Of a stretch of 33,695 nucleotides of DNA, positions 4,290 to 33,695 are shown one piece after another. Numbering within the stretch: position 1 is the first letter of the stretch; each line of letters begins with the position of its first letter. Made by a program: the position numbers and the translations under genes. The stretch lies in assembly GCA_002699085.1 (NCBI GenBank), contig PAAR01000029.1:65249-98943 (forward strand), given 5' to 3'. This stretch comes from Micavibrio sp. (lineage in GTDB: Bacteria > Pseudomonadota > Alphaproteobacteria > Micavibrionales > UBA9664). The notes beneath the pieces were generated by a model. It ran no database searches and was not told the DNA's origin. It saw only the letters and a program-made list of their open reading frames with translations.

Positions 4290-5558
4290 ATGGATATTTC
4301 ACTCGATTATATAAGTTTTGCCCTCGGGGCTGGGACAGCTTTACTGCTTTTTGCCTATTGGATCATTAAAGGCATCACTGCCAAGAACCAAGACAAAGAG
4401 ATCGCTACGCTACAAACACGCCTAGAGATTGAACAACAAACAATCTCTACCGCTCGTGAAGAGCTTTCCAACCAATTTAAAGTTCTGTCTCAAGAAGCAC
4501 TGTCACAATCATCAGAAAGTTTTTTAAAACTTGCTCAAGAAAAACTAAAGCAATCACAGAATGATTCAGCGCATGATTTGAATAAACGCCAAACCGCTAT
4601 CGATGAAATGGTTAAACCAATTAAAGAGCATCTTAAAAAATTAGAGGAATCTCTTAATACCGTTAAAGGCACAGACCAATCTTTGATGGAGCAAATCCAA
4701 CATTTACAAAAAACCACCTCACGTATTGACGGGGCCTTGCGTAATCCACGCCACCAAGGCGAATGGGGTGAAAAGGTTTTAGAGGTTATTTTAGAACATT
4801 CAGGCTTAATGAAGGGTGTCCATTTTGAAACACAAAAAACACTTGAGATTGATGGACAAAAATTGCGGCCCGATGCGATCATCACCTTAGGCGATGGTTT
4901 AAAAATTATTGTCGATGCGAAAGCCCCTATCCATGATTTCTCTAGCGCATTAAGTGATGTTGACGATGAAACACAATATAAAGAAATAACCCAAGCCCTT
5001 GCTCGCCAATTACGCCACCATGTCCAAGAGTTAAAGAAACGTTCTTATTGGGAGGGCATTGAAAATGTCGATTTCACTGTGCTGTTCTTACCATCTGAAC
5101 ATGTTTTCTCCGCAGCTATTCAAGCTGATCCAGCTCTTATTGATTATGCCGCCGAGCATAAAATTATTATTGTCTCTCCAACACTAATGATTTCACTACT
5201 TAAAGTCGTCAACTTCTCTTGGCGTCAGGTTGAGTTGGCTGAAAATGCTGCCAAAATATCTGTAGCAGGGGCAGAGCTTCATAAGCGCCTGTCAAAATTC
5301 ACTGAATATCTTGCTAAAATGGGGCGTGGACTTAATCAAGCGCTGAATAGCTATGATGAAGCAATCGGTTCTTTTGAGGCACGTGTGCTACCACAAGCCA
5401 AAGCCATGGAAGATCTACATATTACATCACAATCTGATACAGGCATTGAAGCGTTACCAAAAATTGGTAAAACCGTGCGAAATGTCACAAAACTTGCAGA
5501 AAATGATATAACAGAAGATAGTACGCTGATTGAATTACAGGATAAACAACGTAAATAA
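4290..5558 (+). CDS. rmuC: DNA recombination protein RmuC (backbone copy)
   Basis: A 422-residue RmuC-family protein: an N-terminal transmembrane helix (about residues 8-27), a long heptad-rich coiled coil (about 30-145), then the RmuC core with a restriction-endonuclease-like fold. Core features are LRNPRHQGEWGE, the KIIVDAKAP strand whose Asp-x-Lys matches the predicted nuclease motif, and FLPSEHVFSAA. RmuC limits DNA inversion at short inverted repeats; its biochemical activity is poorly defined. AAAGGA lies about 6 bases before the ATG. def follows 5 bases later, so rmuC-def is one transcript, a usual alphaproteobacterial arrangement. A second, divergent RmuC starts at 33,379. Confidence 0.93.
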   Translation: MDISLDYISFALGAGTALLLFAYWIIKGITAKNQDKEIATLQTRLEIEQQTISTAREELSNQFKVLSQEALSQSSESFLKLAQEKLKQSQNDSAHDLNKRQTAIDEMVKPIKEHLKKLEESLNTVKGTDQSLMEQIQHLQKTTSRIDGALRNPRHQGEWGEKVLEVILEHSGLMKGVHFETQKTLEIDGQKLRPDAIITLGDGLKIIVDAKAPIHDFSSALSDVDDETQYKEITQALARQLRHHVQELKKRSYWEGIENVDFTVLFLPSEHVFSAAIQADPALIDYAAEHKIIIVSPTLMISLLKVVNFSWRQVELAENAAKISVAGAELHKRLSKFTEYLAKMGRGLNQALNSYDEAIGSFEARVLPQAKAMEDLHITSQSDTGIEALPKIGKTVRNVTKLAENDITEDSTLIELQDKQRK

Positions 5559-29166: not shown

Positions 29167-29793
29167 ATGAAACATCTATCTTTTCTTCTCGTGCTTTTTG
29201 CGTTCACTTTACCAGCACAAGCTGAAACAATTACCTTTACCAATGGCGATCGTCTAAGTGGGACGGTCGTTGGCAATACAATGTCAGGCATTCGTTTCCA
29301 AACAAATTTTGGTCAGGAAGTCTTTATTCCTTACGAACAAATTGCCGATAACACGCAAGTCATCAGCACCACACCTCAGACACAACAAACAGCCAATGCC
29401 CAACCCGTTGAGAAAGAGATAGCGTCTATTGAACCAGCGGCTGGTCCAGAAACAGGTGTAAAATGGTCTGGATCGGTTAATCTTGGTGGTAATTTACAGG
29501 ATGGTAATACCCAAAGAAACGCCCTCACCCTTGACTCTGAGGCAACCGCTCGTCGTAAAGATGACCGGTTTAAAGTTAGTTTTGATTACAATATGGCCGA
29601 AGAGGGCGGCACACAAACAGAAGATGAAATTACCTTAGAAGGTGTCTATGACTACTTCTTTAATCCTAAGTGGTTTGCCAACTCAAACCTTAAATTTCAA
29701 CGAGATAAAATCAGCAATATAGATTTACGTTCTGAATTTGGGCTGGGTCTTGGCCATCAAGTCTATGAAACGGATGATCTAAATTTACAATAA
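29167..29793 (+). pseudogene. DUF481/YdiY-family outer-membrane protein, truncated at a sequence junction
   Basis: A 208-residue reading frame, shorter than the usual 300-plus. It has a signal peptide (cleavage after PAQA, about 19), then an SH3-like strand set (ITFTNGDRLSGTVVG... VFIPYEQI, about 22-60), a Thr/Gln-rich linker, and the first half of a DUF481 beta-barrel beginning VKWSGSVNLGGNLQDGNTQR (about 98). The barrel strands end at VYETDDLNLQ with an abrupt stop, where the rest (another 100-plus residues) should continue. The cut coincides with a change in base composition. The remaining barrel is probably absent, so the protein is likely non-functional. Confidence 0.8.
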
Positions 29794-31213
29794 TTGTTCT
29801 TGTATCGTCTTCATATTTCGCTCTGTAATCTGAACTTCCTAGATGATCAAAAGATATATTAAAACCTCCTCCAGATTTTCTCTTTTTAGATTTTTTTTCA
29901 GATCCTTTAGTCTTTGTTTCTTCATCGGTTTTTTCTAACACACCACCTTCCTTTCCTCTCCCATCTCCTTCACCTCCTTCACCATCTCCTCTACCTTCAT
30001 GAATTCCTGCATTTCCGTCTCCTTCAACAAGATTTGTGTTGAAATCTTTTCCAACTACAATTTTTGCCTCTCCTAACGCTGGAAGATCCTGATCTTTTTC
30101 ATCTATAGTTCCCTTGGCTTTTGCTGCTCTTTTTTGAAAATCTAGCTCTTGTTCTTTAAAATCACTATTAAAAAAATCCTTCATTTTTTCAGCTTCCTTT
30201 TGAAGAGCCTCTTCTTTTTCTTTATCTCTTTTGGCATTAGCTTCCTTTTCAAGTCTCTTTCTAACTTTATCAACTTCTATAAGAACAAATTCTTGAAATT
30301 TTTTTGCAAGCTCGTTATCAAGATTTAATTCCTCTCTTCTGCTGCTATCAAAAATAGGTGGATCTTGATCCTCATCTATTAGTTTATCACACGAACATTC
30401 TCCAAAAATGAATTCATTATATCTTGCTGAAGGATTATTTATGAAGGCTTTATAAATTCCCTTAGCAAAAACTTTTATACCTCGTTCATCAGCATTTAAT
30501 TTTTTACTTGCAATCTTTATTGATAATTTTGCATCACCTATAATATTTTTTAAATCCCCTTCAGTTTTGACTATTATCTCTTCACTAAAAGGAATTTCCT
30601 TCTTTTCAATTTCTTCTTCTTGTAAAAAAAGTTTTATTTTATGTTTGTATACTGTTTCTGTAAGAGTTTTTGATTGTAAAAATTCTTTAATACTATTAAT
30701 TTTAATTGGTCTTTTTAATCTAAAATCTAGAATGTCTACTATAGTTCCACTTTTTTCAGCTGTATCTTCATTTTCCTTTATCCATCGAGCTTTTACAACT
30801 TTTTCAGATATCTTAGCATCACAATCTGATCTCCTTATTTCAAACTCAGTTAATTTATTATCTCTTACAGTTCTGACTCTCAAAATTTTTCCAATACCAA
30901 GTGCTGCAACTTTTCCAGTTCCATACTCTCCTCTTCCAAAATCGCCCTTTGCTCTTTCTTGATTCTCCTGTCCTAAAACTAGAAACCTTTCATTTATTTC
31001 TTTTACATTCATACCTCTTGAATTATCTTTAATTCTTATTGATTTATTTTCTTGATCCACAAATATCTCAACTGTTGGGTCATGATCTGTGTATTGCCAA
31101 CTATTTTTAACGTATTCTCCAACTGCTTTTCCTTCATTAGAAAATCTTTTTGTTTCCTCTAATAACATTCTGCCTGCATGCACTGTCATTCCAGATTTAA
31201 GCTTAATTGTCAT
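29711..31213 (-). CDS. GHKL-type ATPase (HSP90/MORC-like) of a candidate defence operon, probably C-truncated
   Basis: A 500-residue protein whose first half is a GHKL ATPase domain. N-box EYVKN (33-37), DNSRGM (63-68), and lid GRGEYGTGK (93-101) are present; this set fits HSP90, MutL, MORC and histidine-kinase ATPases. A Lys/Glu coiled-coil (about 320-380) and a Gly/Glu/Asp-rich linker (about 400-450) follow, then a short C-terminal domain reaching RTIIVNLDHP. The last 27 residues (29,714-29,794) read back through the DUF481 gene, so the native C-terminus is probably lost. The start is ATG 31213, with AGGAGGTGAT just before it; a longer in-frame start at 31243 lies inside the upstream gene. 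It overlaps the winged-helix gene by 11 bases, so it is coupled. Confidence 0.78.
   Translation of the reverse strand: MTIKLKSGMTVHAGRMLLEETKRFSNEGKAVGEYVKNSWQYTDHDPTVEIFVDQENKSIRIKDNSRGMNVKEINERFLVLGQENQERAKGDFGRGEYGTGKVAALGIGKILRVRTVRDNKLTEFEIRRSDCDAKISEKVVKARWIKENEDTAEKSGTIVDILDFRLKRPIKINSIKEFLQSKTLTETVYKHKIKLFLQEEEIEKKEIPFSEEIIVKTEGDLKNIIGDAKLSIKIASKKLNADERGIKVFAKGIYKAFINNPSARYNEFIFGECSCDKLIDEDQDPPIFDSSRREELNLDNELAKKFQEFVLIEVDKVRKRLEKEANAKRDKEKEEALQKEAEKMKDFFNSDFKEQELDFQKRAAKAKGTIDEKDQDLPALGEAKIVVGKDFNTNLVEGDGNAGIHEGRGDGEGGEGDGRGKEGGVLEKTDEETKTKGSEKKSKKRKSGGGFNISFDHLGSSDYRAKYEDDTRTIIVNLDHPFHRLDGQDPAQIQNVNLYC
29768..29793. other. Double-truncation junction between backbone and AT-rich segment
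   Basis: On the plus strand the DUF481 reading frame looks native up to about 29,790; on the minus strand the ATPase frame looks native down to about 29,768. Both lose their normal C-terminal continuation, and composition and codon choice change here. An overlap of about 20 bases that fits both genes is compatible with a microhomology-mediated deletion, an island boundary, or a short-overlap assembly chimera. Confidence 0.6.
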
Positions 31214-31793
31214 TATCACCTCCTGTAGTTTGACTTTCTGCAACTTGATCTATAATTTTTTTAAATTTTTTGTCAGAAACAAATAAATTCTTTATTTTCT
31301 GAATTTTTTCATCTTTTTGATTATTTTTCATATAATCATTAAGTCTAAAAAAGTCGTTATATTCCCTTGATGAAATTTGTGATATCTTATTCTCTAAAGC
31401 TTTTTTGTAGGCCTTCGAAGATTGTAGTCTTATTTTTGTGTTATCAAAAATTTCTTTTGAAACTGGAATTCTTATTTTACTTTGATCAAAACTCTTAACT
31501 TTACTTATATTTTTTTTTGCAAATTGGATACCTTCCTCAGTGAGTAAATAGCTATCAGTATTCTTTTCTTTGGCCATCTGGCGGATGTAACCTTTTTTTC
31601 TTGCATTTGATAGTGCATCCCAAGTGTTGCTATCGCTAATCATATTAGGGTCAGTTTTCCATCTAAAACGTCCATGGGCTATTTCATCAGCTTTTTTAGC
31701 AATAGTTTCTATATCAAATGTACCAATTCCAGATCCGAGTATATAAACTGCTATAGTAACTATCTCTTGATTTGAAAATTTATTATTTTTCAT
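31203..31793 (-). CDS. Winged-helix-like protein, partner of the GHKL ATPase
   Basis: A 196-residue cytosolic protein. The N-terminal half reads as a winged-helix type domain: NQEIVTIAVYILGSG, then TFDIETIAKKADEIAHGRFRW, a helix with WDALSNARKKGYI and a wing ending YLLTEEGIQFAKK. In my recollection this pattern (DxExIAxKAxELAxGRFxW followed by LTxxG) recurs in uncharacterised proteins next to ATP-binding genes, which I cannot verify here. The C-terminal half is a Lys-rich helical region (about 115-185). Its last codons contain the ATPase ribosome-binding site. It lies 1 base after the 80-residue gene. Sequence-specific DNA binding is plausible. Confidence 0.75.
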   Translation of the reverse strand: MKNNKFSNQEIVTIAVYILGSGIGTFDIETIAKKADEIAHGRFRWKTDPNMISDSNTWDALSNARKKGYIRQMAKEKNTDSYLLTEEGIQFAKKNISKVKSFDQSKIRIPVSKEIFDNTKIRLQSSKAYKKALENKISQISSREYNDFFRLNDYMKNNQKDEKIQKIKNLFVSDKKFKKIIDQVAESQTTGGDNDN

Positions 31794-31794
31794 T

Positions 31795-32037
31795 TTATTT
31801 AAAAAAGATATCGTTATTTCTATTTCTTTTATTTTTTGCTCTATTGAAGCTGTTCTTAACTTCTCTAATAGCCTCGTCTAATTTCTTAAATATTAAGTTT
31901 TTTTCTTTTTCTTCGTATCCGTAGTATCTTTGATTTGCTATATTATTTAATAGTTTAATTGATTTTACAGCATTGGATAATCTTCTGTTTCCATGTTTTA
32001 AAAAGTTATCTCTTTTTTGTTTATCTGTTAAAGCCAT
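31795..32037 (-). CDS. Small helical protein, first gene of the three-gene operon
   Basis: An 80-residue, very basic protein: FLKHGNRRLSNAVKSIKLLNNIANQRYYGYEE then a second helix with IFKKLDEAIREVKNSFNRAK. The pattern NxRxxNAxKxIxLxxNxxN-x-xYxY resembles a family of small uncharacterised proteins, recalled but not searched. The ATG at 32037 lies 6 bases from a predicted -10, with no Shine-Dalgarno sequence. One base separates it from the winged-helix-like gene, so the three genes are one transcription unit. Function unknown. Confidence 0.7.
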   Translation of the reverse strand: MALTDKQKRDNFLKHGNRRLSNAVKSIKLLNNIANQRYYGYEEKEKNLIFKKLDEAIREVKNSFNRAKNKRNRNNDIFFK

Positions 32038-32043
32038 ACATGT

Positions 32044-32071
32044 AAAATAATCATTTAATTGAAGAAGTCAA
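32044..32071 (-). promoter_or_regulatory. Predicted promoter of the three-gene operon, possibly leaderless
   Basis: On the minus strand TTGACT (32071-32066), 16-base spacer, TATTTT (32049-32044). The -10 ends 6 bases before the ATG at 32037, which leaves almost no leader. Confidence 0.45.
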
Positions 32072-32119
32072 GTGGTTTTTTAAATACTATTTAAAATGAC
32101 AATTAATGTGAGAATTCAT

Positions 32120-32149
32120 TTGACACACTAGTAAACATTATGCTAATAA
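32120..32149 (+). promoter_or_regulatory. Predicted divergent promoter
   Basis: A consensus TTGACA (32120-32125) followed after 18 bases by TAATAA (32144-32149). It points toward the small genes from 32,299, and the start would be near 32,156, beside the inverted repeat at 32,158. Confidence 0.45.
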
Positions 32150-32157
32150 GCATTAAA

Positions 32158-32210
32158 TTTATTAATTGTTAGTTTATGAGTGGTTTCATCAATTAATAAA
32201 ATAATAACTG
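32158..32210. promoter_or_regulatory. Perfect 11-bp inverted repeat in the divergent control region
   Basis: TTTATTAATTG (32158-32168) and CAATTAATAAA (32200-32210) are exact inverted repeats separated by 31 bases, about three helix turns. Position just downstream of the predicted plus-strand promoter suggests an operator for a dimeric or looping repressor. The winged-helix-like protein encoded by the neighbouring operon is a candidate ligand. Such AT-rich repeats can arise by chance in this DNA. Confidence 0.4.
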
Positions 32211-32250
32211 GCATTCTTTGTCTTTCTTTCTGGTCAGTTATTTAGCACAC

Positions 32251-32280
32251 GCCTTGGTGGTATTCCTTTCCCACCAAGGC
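32251..32280 (+). promoter_or_regulatory. GC-rich hairpin upstream of the small-gene run
   Basis: GCCTTGGTGG (32251-32260) and CCACCAAGGC (32271-32280) form a perfect 10-bp stem with a TATTCCTTTC loop, standing out in very AT-rich DNA. It is followed by A-rich sequence rather than T, so it is not a standard terminator on the plus strand; on the minus strand no T-run follows either. It lies about 20 bases before the first small gene and could be a leader structure. Confidence 0.55.
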
Positions 32281-32298
32281 TTAAAAAAGAAAAAGAAT

Positions 32299-32589
32299 AT
32301 GGAAGTATATGATATGAAAACTTTAGAAACTGATATTTTAGAGCTTAATGATAATATCGATCAAAGCGAATTATCTTCTCAAGCAATAAATAGATACATA
32401 GAGATTTCAACGCATTACATAAATATGGAAAAAATTCAAAAAGCTAGAAAAATATTAATTTCAATAGGTTTTACCAAAAAAAGTGTAGAAAAATATATTA
32501 TACGAACAATTCAGGATGCAGAAATACACATATCTGAAGACTTTAAACTATTGATGAAGGGAAAAGTTTCAAAAAGATATTTAAATTAA
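32299..32589 (+). CDS. Hypothetical 96-residue helical protein
   Basis: An acidic then basic, all-helical, AT-rich gene product with no signal or membrane segment: it opens MEVYDMKTLETDILELNDN, then a long helix with YINMEKIQKARKILISIGF and VEKYIIRTIQDAEIHI. The pattern hints at a small cytosolic dimer or DNA-associated protein, but nothing is recognised. The start could instead be ATG 32314, which has GGAAG 8 bases upstream. It is the first of a plus-strand run of tiny genes divergent from the three-gene operon. Confidence 0.55.
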   Translation: MEVYDMKTLETDILELNDNIDQSELSSQAINRYIEISTHYINMEKIQKARKILISIGFTKKSVEKYIIRTIQDAEIHISEDFKLLMKGKVSKRYLN

Positions 32590-32601
32590 TGAATAAAAAA
32601 A

Positions 32602-32700
32602 ATGTTTAGTTTTATATGGCAATTTTTAAGTGGAATGATTTTATTTGTTATATTGGTTTTTGGATTGTTTTATTTAACAAAAATATTTTTAGGATTTTAG
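32602..32700 (+). CDS. Putative 32-residue membrane peptide
   Basis: ATG 32602 to TAG 32700 encodes a peptide starting MFSFIWQFLSGMILFVIL and ending in a short Lys-containing tail, that is, one hydrophobic helix almost from end to end. Small toxic or accessory membrane peptides look like this, but AT-rich DNA also yields such ORFs by chance and there is no good ribosome-binding site. It lies 18 bases before the tRNA-like gene. Confidence 0.35.
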   Translation: MFSFIWQFLSGMILFVILVFGLFYLTKIFLGF

Positions 32701-32717
32701 TCATGAAAATTCGATAT

Positions 32718-32802
32718 GCTCAAATGGCGAAACAGTTAGACGCGACAAGTAAAACTTGTTTCACTACGGTGAGTACCAGTGCAAATCTGGTTTTGGGCAC
32801 CA
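32718..32802 (+). tRNA. tRNA-Leu-like gene (type II) with a shortened anticodon loop
   Basis: An 85-base cloverleaf with encoded CCA. Acceptor GCTCAAA/TTTGGGC (one G-U), discriminator A, D-stem GCG/CGC, long variable arm TCAC/GTGA, T-stem ACCAG/CTGGT. The long arm, the A73 discriminator and the D-arm point to leucine. The anticodon stem ACAAG/CTTGT encloses only TAAAA; a normal Leu(UAA) loop has seven bases such as TTTAAAA, so two are missing. If the inner G-C pair is opened, a seven-base loop GTAAAAC reads anticodon AAA (codon UUU). The T-loop is TGCAAAT (base 55 is G, not T), and base 19 is T, not G, so elbow contacts are weakened. It may be a degenerate, element-borne or specialised tRNA. 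Confidence 0.7.
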
Positions 32803-32821
32803 TAGATGACTATATCTTGTG

Positions 32822-32842
32822 GGAAGGGATAGTTCCCCTTCC
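32822..32842 (+). promoter_or_regulatory. Hairpin and sequestered ribosome-binding site before the 97-residue gene
   Basis: GGAAGGG (32822-32828) pairs with CCCTTCC (32836-32842) around ATAGTTC. Directly after it, AAAAGGAGCTTTT (32847-32859) is itself a 5-bp mini-hairpin with the Shine-Dalgarno core in its loop and stem, ending at the ATG 32860. The pair could tune translation of the gene. No T-run follows the first stem. Confidence 0.5.
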
Positions 32843-32859
32843 TGCAAAAAGGAGCTTTT

Positions 32860-33153
32860 ATGAATAATTTTTTTAAAGAAAAATTAAAAAATAGATTGAT
32901 GTATTGTTTAAATTGGAAAAAAGATACAGAACTATATCTAAAATATAAAAATCTTACAGATACTGTAAATAGAAAATATTACGAAAAAAAACCTATATTA
33001 AAACTTTTTTTAAATATTTATTTTCTACCAATAAATGTGCTAAAATTTTTGCATCTTTTAAGAATTTCAAGAGATTTAGAAAAGAACAACATAGAGATAA
33101 GTTACATATATAATCAACTAGATAAAGAAGAAAACAATTATGAAAAAGAATAA
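32860..33153 (+). CDS. Hypothetical 97-residue basic protein
   Basis: A Lys/Asn/Tyr-rich protein with a strong AGGAG ribosome-binding site 6 bases from the ATG. It has a hydrophobic central stretch (about 45-65, KLFLNIYFLPINVLKFLHLL) that could be a membrane-interacting helix, flanked by basic and then acidic regions ending in EENNYEKE. It overlaps the next gene by 14 bases, so the two are coupled. Composition is typical of the AT-rich segment. No family recognised. Confidence 0.6.
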   Translation: MNNFFKEKLKNRLMYCLNWKKDTELYLKYKNLTDTVNRKYYEKKPILKLFLNIYFLPINVLKFLHLLRISRDLEKNNIEISYIYNQLDKEENNYEKE

Positions 33154-33346
33154 CATTATCATTTTTTCTAAACATTTTATAAAAAAAAGAATAATTGAAG
33201 AGGGAAGAACATATATAAATGAATTAGTTGGAGAATGTTGTGAGTGTAGTGGGGAAGGTTTTATTTATGAAAGTGATATAGAGATAGTTTGTATCTGTTG
33301 TGATGGAACTGGTGTAATCTACTATGATAAGAAAAAATTAAATTGA
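33140..33346 (+). CDS. Zinc-finger mini-protein with DnaJ-like CxxCxGxG motifs
   Basis: A 68-residue protein. The first 30 residues are basic and helical (KKNNIIIFSKHFIKKRIIEE). Then come two Cys motifs, CCECSGEGFIY and CICCDGTGVIYYD, spaced by about 16 residues, each matching the CxxCxGxG repeat of the DnaJ zinc domain and expected to bind one zinc as a pair. Isolated DnaJ-type zinc fingers of this size occur in phage and mobile-element genes. It overlaps the 97-residue gene, and a stop at 33346 precedes the RmuC start by 32 bases. Role unknown. Confidence 0.65.
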   Translation: MKKNNIIIFSKHFIKKRIIEEGRTYINELVGECCECSGEGFIYESDIEIVCICCDGTGVIYYDKKKLN

Positions 33347-33378
33347 AATATAAAAATAGGAGTATAACGTAGAGAATC

Positions 33379-33695
33379 ATGGATATAATAATAGTAGGAT
33401 TAATAGTAACTGTTTTATTGGTAAATATAGCTTTATTTTTAAAGTTCAAAAGCAAACCTGATGTGGAGGATAATAAAGATCAAGAAGTCCTTAAAATTAA
33501 GGACGACATTAATAGTCTTAAAAATTCATTAGGTGATTCATTCAATAGTATGAGTAAAGAAGTCGCTAAAGATATGACAGTAGCCTTAACTAAAGTGGAT
33601 GAAAAAGTTGGAAACTTTAATCAACAAGTACAATTACTAAATCAAAGCCAAGAGGGTATTACCAAAATTTTAGCAGGAGTTAAAAAATATGGAAC
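33379..33695 (+). CDS. RmuC-family protein, second copy, 3'-truncated by window edge
   Basis: A frame open to the window end (105 codons). It begins MDIIIVGLIVTVLLVNIALF, one transmembrane helix, then a Lys/Glu/Asp coiled-coil region with KEVAKDMTVALTKVDEKVGNF and NQQVQLLNQSQEGITKIL. The last residues GVKKYG occupy the place of the RmuC-core entry (compare LRNPRHQGEWGE in copy 1). That layout and wording fit the RmuC family. It differs markedly from copy 1 in sequence and composition, so it is not a recent duplicate; it belongs to the AT-rich segment. The core nuclease-like domain lies outside the window. Confidence 0.72.
   Translation, partial: MDIIIVGLIVTVLLVNIALFLKFKSKPDVEDNKDQEVLKIKDDINSLKNSLGDSFNSMSKEVAKDMTVALTKVDEKVGNFNQQVQLLNQSQEGITKILAGVKKYG

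What the first reader, a model, noticed from the sequence alone, without database searches (positions are those of the whole stretch)
29711..32037. Candidate undescribed three-gene system: small helical protein, winged-helix-like protein and GHKL ATPase
Seen: three minus-strand genes with 1-base spacing and an 11-base overlap carrying the ribosome-binding site, so stoichiometric expression is expected. The ATPase has the complete N-box/DxxGM/GxGxxG set, and a possible leaderless promoter heads the operon. GHKL ATPases joined to DNA-binding partners occur in MORC-like and bacterial defence settings. I cannot match the trio to a named anti-phage system. A defence or mobile-element maintenance role is inference from the foreign composition and the surrounding small genes.
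Basis: partly seen in the sequence, partly recalled or inferred. Interest (0 to 1): 0.7.

Follow-up and report, generated by a model that had tools for sequence, protein, structure and literature searches.

The report
MORC-fold ATPase cassette on stray SAR11 DNA
The three genes are a real, widely shared gene set built around a DNA-clamp-type ATPase, probably a defence cassette, but this copy is cut off at one end and sits on SAR11 (Pelagibacteraceae) DNA that was most likely glued onto the wrong contig during genome assembly.

Summary
The trio is real, with the stated spacings, but the copy is incomplete and out of place. Window 29784-33695 (28% GC, contig end) is Pelagibacteraceae chromosome: the trio is 78% DNA-identical to a SAR11 single cell, and the flanking tRNA/rmuC pieces are 82-94% identical to SAR11 genomes. 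It joins a broken host DUF481 gene at a 21-bp string that is 19/21 identical in the SAR11 ATPase gene. The other DUF481 half starts contig C5 exactly there, so an assembly chimera is by far the likeliest cause. The ATPase lacks about 75 C-terminal residues; its last 20-25 are host antisense.

The system itself is genuine. Among 35 ATPase loci with upstream DNA, nearly all picked by an ATPase motif alone and spread over about 8 phyla, 33 carry the winged-helix gene directly upstream. Most also carry a third protein with alpha-CTD and sigma region 4 domains; the small protein is accessory. The ATPase model best matches eukaryotic MORC (Z 20) but lacks the MORC signature Arg. No conserved component has a recognisable nuclease. 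I found it in neither PADLOC 2.0 nor the papers searched. Laterally mobile invader defence is likely (about 0.6) and untested; a nuclease-free ATP-gated clamp is the favoured mechanism.

The parts
29784..33695 (.). Low-GC (0.282) contig tail of Pelagibacteraceae (SAR11) origin; the host part is 0.407 GC
29772..29792 (.). Junction string GGATGATCTAAATTTACAATA, continuous with both the host DUF481 reading frame and the ATPase reading frame (19 of 21 identical in SAR11 L083)
29167..29792 (+). Host DUF481 gene, 5' half only; the 3' half begins at base 1 of contig G000:C5
29785..31213 (-). GHKL + S5 (MORC-fold) ATPase, truncated at its 3' end by the junction
29711..29771 (-). Chimeric ORF tail: antisense of the host DUF481 gene, not part of the ATPase
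31203..31793 (-). Winged-helix protein (196 aa) with a C-terminal helical region; conserved partner of the ATPase
31795..32037 (-). Small helical protein (80 aa), conserved NxxNxxxYxY motif; accessory subunit found in a minority of loci
32718..32802 (+). tRNA-like gene (ARAGORN: Phe, anticodon aaa), conserved in SAR11 just upstream of rmuC; marks the chromosomal site
33379..33695 (+). SAR11 rmuC, 5' end only (contig end); the host has its own rmuC-like gene at 4290-5558

Best explanation
The low-GC contig end is a piece of SAR11 chromosome joined to the host contig by misassembly at a roughly 20-bp identical string. The trio on it is a truncated copy of a rare, laterally mobile, multi-phylum cassette: a MORC-fold (paraMORC-like) GHKL ATPase, a nearly constant winged-helix partner, usually a protein built from RNA-polymerase-type DNA-binding modules (alpha-CTD and sigma region 4), and sometimes a small helical protein. 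Favoured mechanism (inference): the sigma4/alpha-CTD and winged-helix proteins recognise invading or wrongly marked DNA, and the ATPase dimerises on ATP and closes as a clamp on it, blocking its use without cutting it. Shown here: provenance, conservation, gene linkage, domains and predicted fold. Not shown: DNA binding, ATP hydrolysis, protection against phage or plasmid.
For: Provenance: tail 78% identical over 2255 bp to SAR11 single cell AG-898-P19; rmuC and tRNA pieces up to 94% and 84% identical to SAR11 genomes, side by side in G1160; DUF481 right half at base 1 of C5; shared junction string. Conservation: an ATPase-only motif scan gave 45 contigs; with the window, 38 distinct loci hold a related ATPase; winged-helix gene directly upstream in 33 of 35 testable; sigma4/alpha-CTD family found in 30 loci before removing duplicates and including a few ordinary sigma factors, Sigma70_r4 in 23 of 24 and alpha-CTD in 15 of 24 members scanned. 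A complete operon, small-wH-ATPase-sigma, exists in a SAR11 genome (L125). Fold: ATPase residues 6-327 match MORC3 at Z 20.2; winged helix Z 10.2 to SSV1 F-93, about 9 to MarR proteins. Mobility: tree mixes phyla; 2 of 397 SAR11 genomes have it. Context: neighbours include LmuB, SoFic, Dsr1-like and type IIG/I R-M genes; the SAR11 tRNA/rmuC site holds DruA plus MzaB-like GHKL in G1160. PglW of type 2 BREX also couples an alpha-CTD module to winged helices (PMC12839542).
Against: No functional data. Many loci sit beside metabolic genes rather than in defence islands, and the defence-neighbour count has no background control. The SAR11 L083/window version has no detectable sigma4/alpha-CTD gene, so either it is dispensable or that version is degenerate. 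The absence of a nuclease rests on profile searches; the ATPase linker (about residues 369-448) is disordered in the model. The chimera verdict rests on contig geometry; reads were not available.
Confidence: 0.6

Rival explanations
1. Restriction accessory: the ATPase loops or bridges DNA for a nuclease supplied by a neighbouring or unlinked restriction system, as proposed for MORCs and paraMORCs by Iyer et al. 2008.
For: The closest named ATPase profiles are N-terminal regions of restriction enzymes (BbrUII/HgiDII E 9e-18; PADLOC REase_II); paraMORCs sit in R-M operons (PMC2292703); a few loci here have R-M genes nearby.
Against: No nuclease, helicase or methylase is conserved next to the cassette in the loci examined; the conserved partners are DNA-binding proteins.
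Confidence: 0.15
2. Regulatory pair: the GHKL protein acts as a kinase or switch on the winged-helix protein, which represses a nearby operon, like CapK/CapS.
For: GHKL protein plus winged-helix protein beside other genes is the CapK/CapS arrangement (PMC13373217); the winged-helix domain resembles MarR/PadR repressors.
Against: CapK/CapS depend on STAS domains; no STAS domain was detected in these proteins. The ATPase has the GHKL+S5 module of MORC/Hsp90-type clamps over 300 residues. The neighbouring genes vary while the cassette does not.
Confidence: 0.1
3. The tail is a true insertion of SAR11 DNA into the host's DUF481 gene (lateral transfer), not a chimera.
For: The sequence reads continuously across the junction in the deposited contig; the sister genome has an intact gene, which an insertion would also explain.
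Against: C5 begins at the junction itself with no foreign DNA, the contig ends 3.9 kb into the tail, the join lies in a 21-bp string of which 19 bases match the SAR11 ATPase gene, and the tail includes SAR11 chromosomal genes duplicating a host gene (rmuC).
Confidence: 0.06
4. Housekeeping or stress function: a chaperone-like or chromosome-maintenance ATPase with no role in defence.
For: The fold also matches Hsp90 at Z about 18; many loci lie among metabolic genes.
Against: Very patchy: no full-length homologue in 94 genomes sampled around the host other than the window itself nor in 398 of the phylum, 2 of 397 in SAR11, and a phylum-mixing tree; HtpG profile match only E 0.01.
Confidence: 0.09

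Closest known systems
paraMORC/MORC GHKL ATPases of prokaryotes (Iyer et al. 2008, PMC2292703)
   Same: N-terminal GHKL plus S5 module, patchy and laterally spread, near defence genes in some genomes; predicted fold closest to eukaryotic MORC
   Different: No conserved helicase, methylase or nuclease partner; the MORC-specific Arg of the S5 motif is absent; partners are winged-helix and sigma4/alpha-CTD proteins; has its own C-terminal domain with an IxxNLxHP strand
VcSduA (Shedu with GHKL domain, paraMORC3; PMC12137116)
   Same: GHKL ATPase with a clamp-like middle domain
   Different: VcSduA carries a DUF4263 PD-(D/E)xK nuclease in the same chain; none was found here
MZA system (PADLOC MzaA/MzaB)
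   Same: GHKL ATPase (MzaB, weak match, NF041932 E 8e-4) and a protein with a sigma4-like module (MzaA matched by 14 of 24 members, best E 1e-8)
   Different: MzaA similarity in the members examined is confined to the sigma4-like stretch; the neighbour scan showed no recurrent MzaC, MzaD or MzaE
PglW of type 2 BREX (PMC12839542)
   Same: alpha-CTD-like module followed by winged helices, interpreted by its authors as a DNA-binding and sensing part
   Different: PglW is a kinase with NERD nuclease and STAND-like domains in one large protein; no GHKL partner
CapK/CapS regulators (PMC13373217)
   Same: GHKL protein paired with a winged-helix protein
   Different: CapK/CapS have STAS domains and kinase-type GHKL; here GHKL+S5 of clamp type
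BbrUII/HgiDII restriction enzymes (NF050001)
   Same: homologous N-terminal ATPase region (E 9e-18)
   Different: far below the family cut-off (64 of 550 bits)

Membership tests
MORC (prokaryotic/eukaryotic) | GHKL ATPase domain with conserved ATP-binding motifs plus S5 domain | tested here: met
   HATPase_c_3 above cut-off; motif columns invariant; model aligns with MORC3 over 301 residues, Z 20.2
MORC (prokaryotic/eukaryotic) | GhXhhpXXRhl motif in the S5 domain (PMC2292703) | tested here: not met
   In 29 aligned members the Arg position is not conserved as Arg (window RGIKVFAKGIYKAF; others GVAVYSNGVW and similar)
paraMORC (1-5) | GHKL+S5 architecture without the MORC motif | tested here: met
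paraMORC (1-5) | placement within one of the five published families | not tested
   the published alignments were not available as sequences
paraMORC (1-5) | R-M helicase, methylase or nuclease genes in the operon | tested here: not met
   not conserved among the loci; R-M genes nearby only in single loci
Shedu (SduA) | DUF4263 nuclease domain | tested here: not met
   no such Pfam match in the window ATPase or the intact G231 homologue
MZA | MzaB-type ATPase at the family cut-off | tested here: not met
   NF041932 17.9 bits, cut-off 850
MZA | MzaC-MzaE partners | tested here: inconclusive
   neighbour scan lists only MzaA-type matches among the 25 families shown; 8-kb windows
HtpG / MutL housekeeping families | family profile match | tested here: not met
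   HtpG E 0.0096 at 14 of 371 bits; no MutL family listed
CapK/CapS | STAS domains in both proteins | tested here: not met
   no STAS match in ATPase or winged-helix protein
Anti-phage defence system | protection against phage or plasmid | not testable with these tools
   needs an experiment

The most novel reading that the evidence does not exclude
A nuclease-free bacterial immune system in which a MORC-fold ATP-gated DNA clamp is directed by modules of RNA-polymerase type (sigma region 4 and alpha-CTD) to silence the transcription of invading DNA: a bacterial counterpart of eukaryotic MORC silencing.
Probability: 0.25. Interest if true: 0.88.

Novelty: new variant of a known kind. Interest (0 to 1): 0.58.

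Why it matters
Prokaryotic MORC relatives have been tied to restriction systems since 2008, and VcSduA shows one with a built-in nuclease. A conserved cassette that pairs a MORC-fold ATPase with sigma4/alpha-CTD and winged-helix proteins, without a recognisable nuclease, would be a simple bacterial model for how MORC clamps silence DNA. Carriers with non-MAG genome records (Maritimibacter HTCC2654, Allopontixanthobacter confluentis, an Arthrobacter) make it testable. The provenance result is a warning: a 'foreign island' at a MAG contig end here is contamination by assembly.

Tried and rejected
Degenerate-peptide scans of viral and genome collections with the single ATPase or the two-row alignment found nothing; a hand-made DNA pattern for FGTGKxAAxGI in genome contigs succeeded, the same pattern in viral contigs gave none, and a 29-row alignment gave none in viral contigs. 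tblastn in phages: none and one weak rIIA-like match. Plasmids: only ATPase relatives; the four regions I opened (R. leguminosarum, S. agalactiae, Deinococcus, Agrobacterium) showed no cassette. Sequence search of PDB: no hit. G319 was dropped as an independent case because its contig is identical to that of G231. HEF_HK paraMORC two-component-like proteins (PMC8011034) considered: no HEF_HK match in the Pfam scans. Weak matches of the two smaller proteins (DUF6429, YtxC, MazG) were below cut-off and not used. A sigma4/alpha-CTD partner in G834 was sought: only matches with the extent and ORF size of RpoA-, RpoD- and RpoH-type proteins, in a partial single-cell genome. Paper searches with MZA names were swamped by unrelated text.

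Full report
What is in the sequence. The three minus-strand genes are there with the stated geometry: 31795-32037 (80 aa), 31203-31793 (196 aa, one base away) and an ATPase starting at 31213 (11-base overlap with an AGGAGG site). The ATPase matches HATPase_c_3 at E 8.6e-15. But the ORF as reported (to 29711) runs into antisense of a host gene.

Where the DNA comes from. The window is the end of contig C1 of a 1.89-Mb, 31-contig genome whose core genes and relatives look alphaproteobacterial; C1 ends at the window's last base. From 29784 on, GC falls from 0.407 to 0.282. The host DUF481 gene that starts at 29167 is broken there; the copy in the same-genus genome G001 is intact (L006). The missing 3' half is found at base 1 of contig C5. 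C5 begins AATTTACAATA-TATTTT, C1 reads GGATGATCTAAATTTACAATA-ATTGTT, and the SAR11 relative L083 reads GGATGATCTAAATTAACAATT at the same place in its ATPase gene. So host gene and ATPase gene are nearly identical over about 20 bases at exactly the join (19 of 21 even against this relative). A DNA search of 397 genomes around the SAR11 single cell showed that the tail is SAR11 chromosome: the trio 78% identical to G834, the tRNA piece and the rmuC-side piece next to each other in G1160 (84% and 71%), and the rmuC end up to 94% identical in other SAR11 genomes. The host already has its own rmuC-like gene at 4290-5558. I conclude that this is an assembly chimera (about 0.93); reads would settle it.

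What the genes are. An intact homologous operon in alphaproteobacterial MAG G231 shows the order small protein, winged-helix protein, ATPase, and a fourth gene with RNA_pol_A_CTD and Sigma70_r4 domains. All three window proteins align with their counterparts over nearly their full lengths (31%, 26%, 32% identity). The comparison shows that the window ATPase stops inside the conserved TRTIxxNLxHP strand and lacks the last about 75 residues.

How general it is. A DNA pattern for the ATPase motif FGTGKxAAxGI, blind to the other genes, found 45 contigs; 38 distinct loci, the window included, hold a related ATPase. Where upstream DNA is held (35 loci) the winged-helix gene lies directly upstream on the same strand in 33 (gaps there are measured between stop-to-stop frames). 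The sigma4/alpha-CTD gene is present in most loci with both flanks held, in three arrangements: downstream, upstream or divergent; 23 of 24 members match Sigma70_r4, 15 match the alpha-CTD, one matches HARE-HTH. The small protein was found in 10 of the scanned loci before removing duplicates, always where the sigma-type gene is downstream or was not found. Carriers include Alpha-, Gamma- and Deltaproteobacteria/Myxococcota, Acidobacteriota, Actinomycetota, Chloroflexota, Verrucomicrobiota, Bacteroidota, Bacillota and a Parcubacteria MAG; the tree mixes phyla. It is rare: besides the window, full-length homologues in 2 of 385 class genomes (one contig counted twice) and in 2 of 397 SAR11 genomes. 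One of these SAR11 genomes, G1190, has the whole four-gene operon (L125).

Fold. With a 29-row alignment the L083 ATPase model (pLDDT 75.7, linker 369-448 disordered) matches MORC3 and MORC2 best (Z 20.2 over about 300 residues, rmsd 4.2-4.5), then Hsp90/TRAP1 at about 18; the difference of about 2 units is modest. The window's winged-helix protein (pLDDT 89) has HHHEE topology and matches SSV1 F-93 (Z 10.2) and MarR proteins (about 9). The MORC-specific Arg in the S5 motif is not conserved, so it is MORC-like in fold but not a MORC by that criterion; it fits the loose paraMORC description (PMC2292703).

Function. Evidence for defence is contextual. In SAR11 genomes G1160 and G1076 the site upstream of the same tRNA and rmuC carries a different GHKL ATPase next to a DruA-type gene (DruA E 9e-107 and MzaB-like E 1e-12 in G1160; the G1076 genes are recognised by their close similarity to these), and in G988 yet another MzaB-like GHKL ATPase lies upstream of rmuC; so the site looks like a place where defence-type cassettes alternate. 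Among the relatives, LmuB, SoFic, a Dsr1-like protein and a type IIG/I restriction-methylation protein lie within 8 kb in L054, L081, L055 and L088, but many other neighbours are metabolic and I had no background rate. None of the conserved components shows a nuclease domain in Pfam or PADLOC. I therefore favour a non-cutting clamp: DNA recognised by sigma4/alpha-CTD and winged-helix modules, held or looped by an ATP-driven MORC-type dimer. Each step of that mechanism is inference. PglW in type 2 BREX is a precedent for an alpha-CTD module with winged helices in a defence protein (PMC12839542); VcSduA is a precedent for a GHKL clamp-type defence protein, there with a nuclease (PMC12137116).

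Known or new. No PADLOC 2.0 model covers the cassette (only partial-domain matches), and nine full-text searches found no description; the paper library lacks most subscription journals and preprints, and the PADLOC copy is from 2023, so a later description may exist. I rate it a new variant of a known kind (paraMORC-type ATPase systems), with a minority chance of something more novel.

Noticed in passing
window 32718-32802; L123:5571-5655; L124:4166-4250: A tRNA-like gene with a long variable arm that ARAGORN calls Phe with the odd anticodon AAA; conserved (82-84% over about 250 bp) just upstream of rmuC in SAR11 genomes. It may be a Leu-type tRNA with a shortened anticodon loop, or a pseudo-tRNA.
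   Followed up: partly
L123, L124, L126 (SAR11 G1160, G1076, G988), upstream of rmuC: The same chromosomal site carries different cassettes in different SAR11 genomes: GHKL ATPases of MzaB type, DruA (Druantia) and sigma-like or uncharacterised proteins. It looks like a SAR11 defence exchange site.
   Followed up: partly
L083:4431-4595: In SAR11 AG-898-P19 the trio abuts a 54-codon ORF that reads like the C-terminal end of ParB, next to holA, which suggests insertion into the 3' end of parB. The contig ends before the other side can be seen.
   Followed up: no
G000:C31:37438-39288 (L004:3439-5289): The host genome's own GHKL protein (616 aa) with a nuclease-like C-terminus lies between type I restriction genes and a cytosine methylase; by eye it resembles the paraMORC3/VcSduA kind.
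   Followed up: no
G231:C55 and G319:C596: Two different species bins hold an identical contig stretch; one of them (G319, 10% contamination) is probably cross-contaminated.
   Followed up: partly
window ATPase residues about 190-246: Weak matches of the S5-region stretch to DUF1374, AcrID1 and phrog_4902 (E 0.002-0.007); probably chance, but the three agree on the place.
   Followed up: no
phrog_6203 against window ATPase residues 20-351: A phage protein family of unknown function matches the ATPase at E 4e-21, so some phages carry a related GHKL protein.
   Followed up: no
L041 (Rhizobium leguminosarum pRlX5): A more distant ATPase with the same layout (GHKL, linker, C-terminal strand) but without the winged-helix gene upstream: possibly a sister family.
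   Followed up: partly
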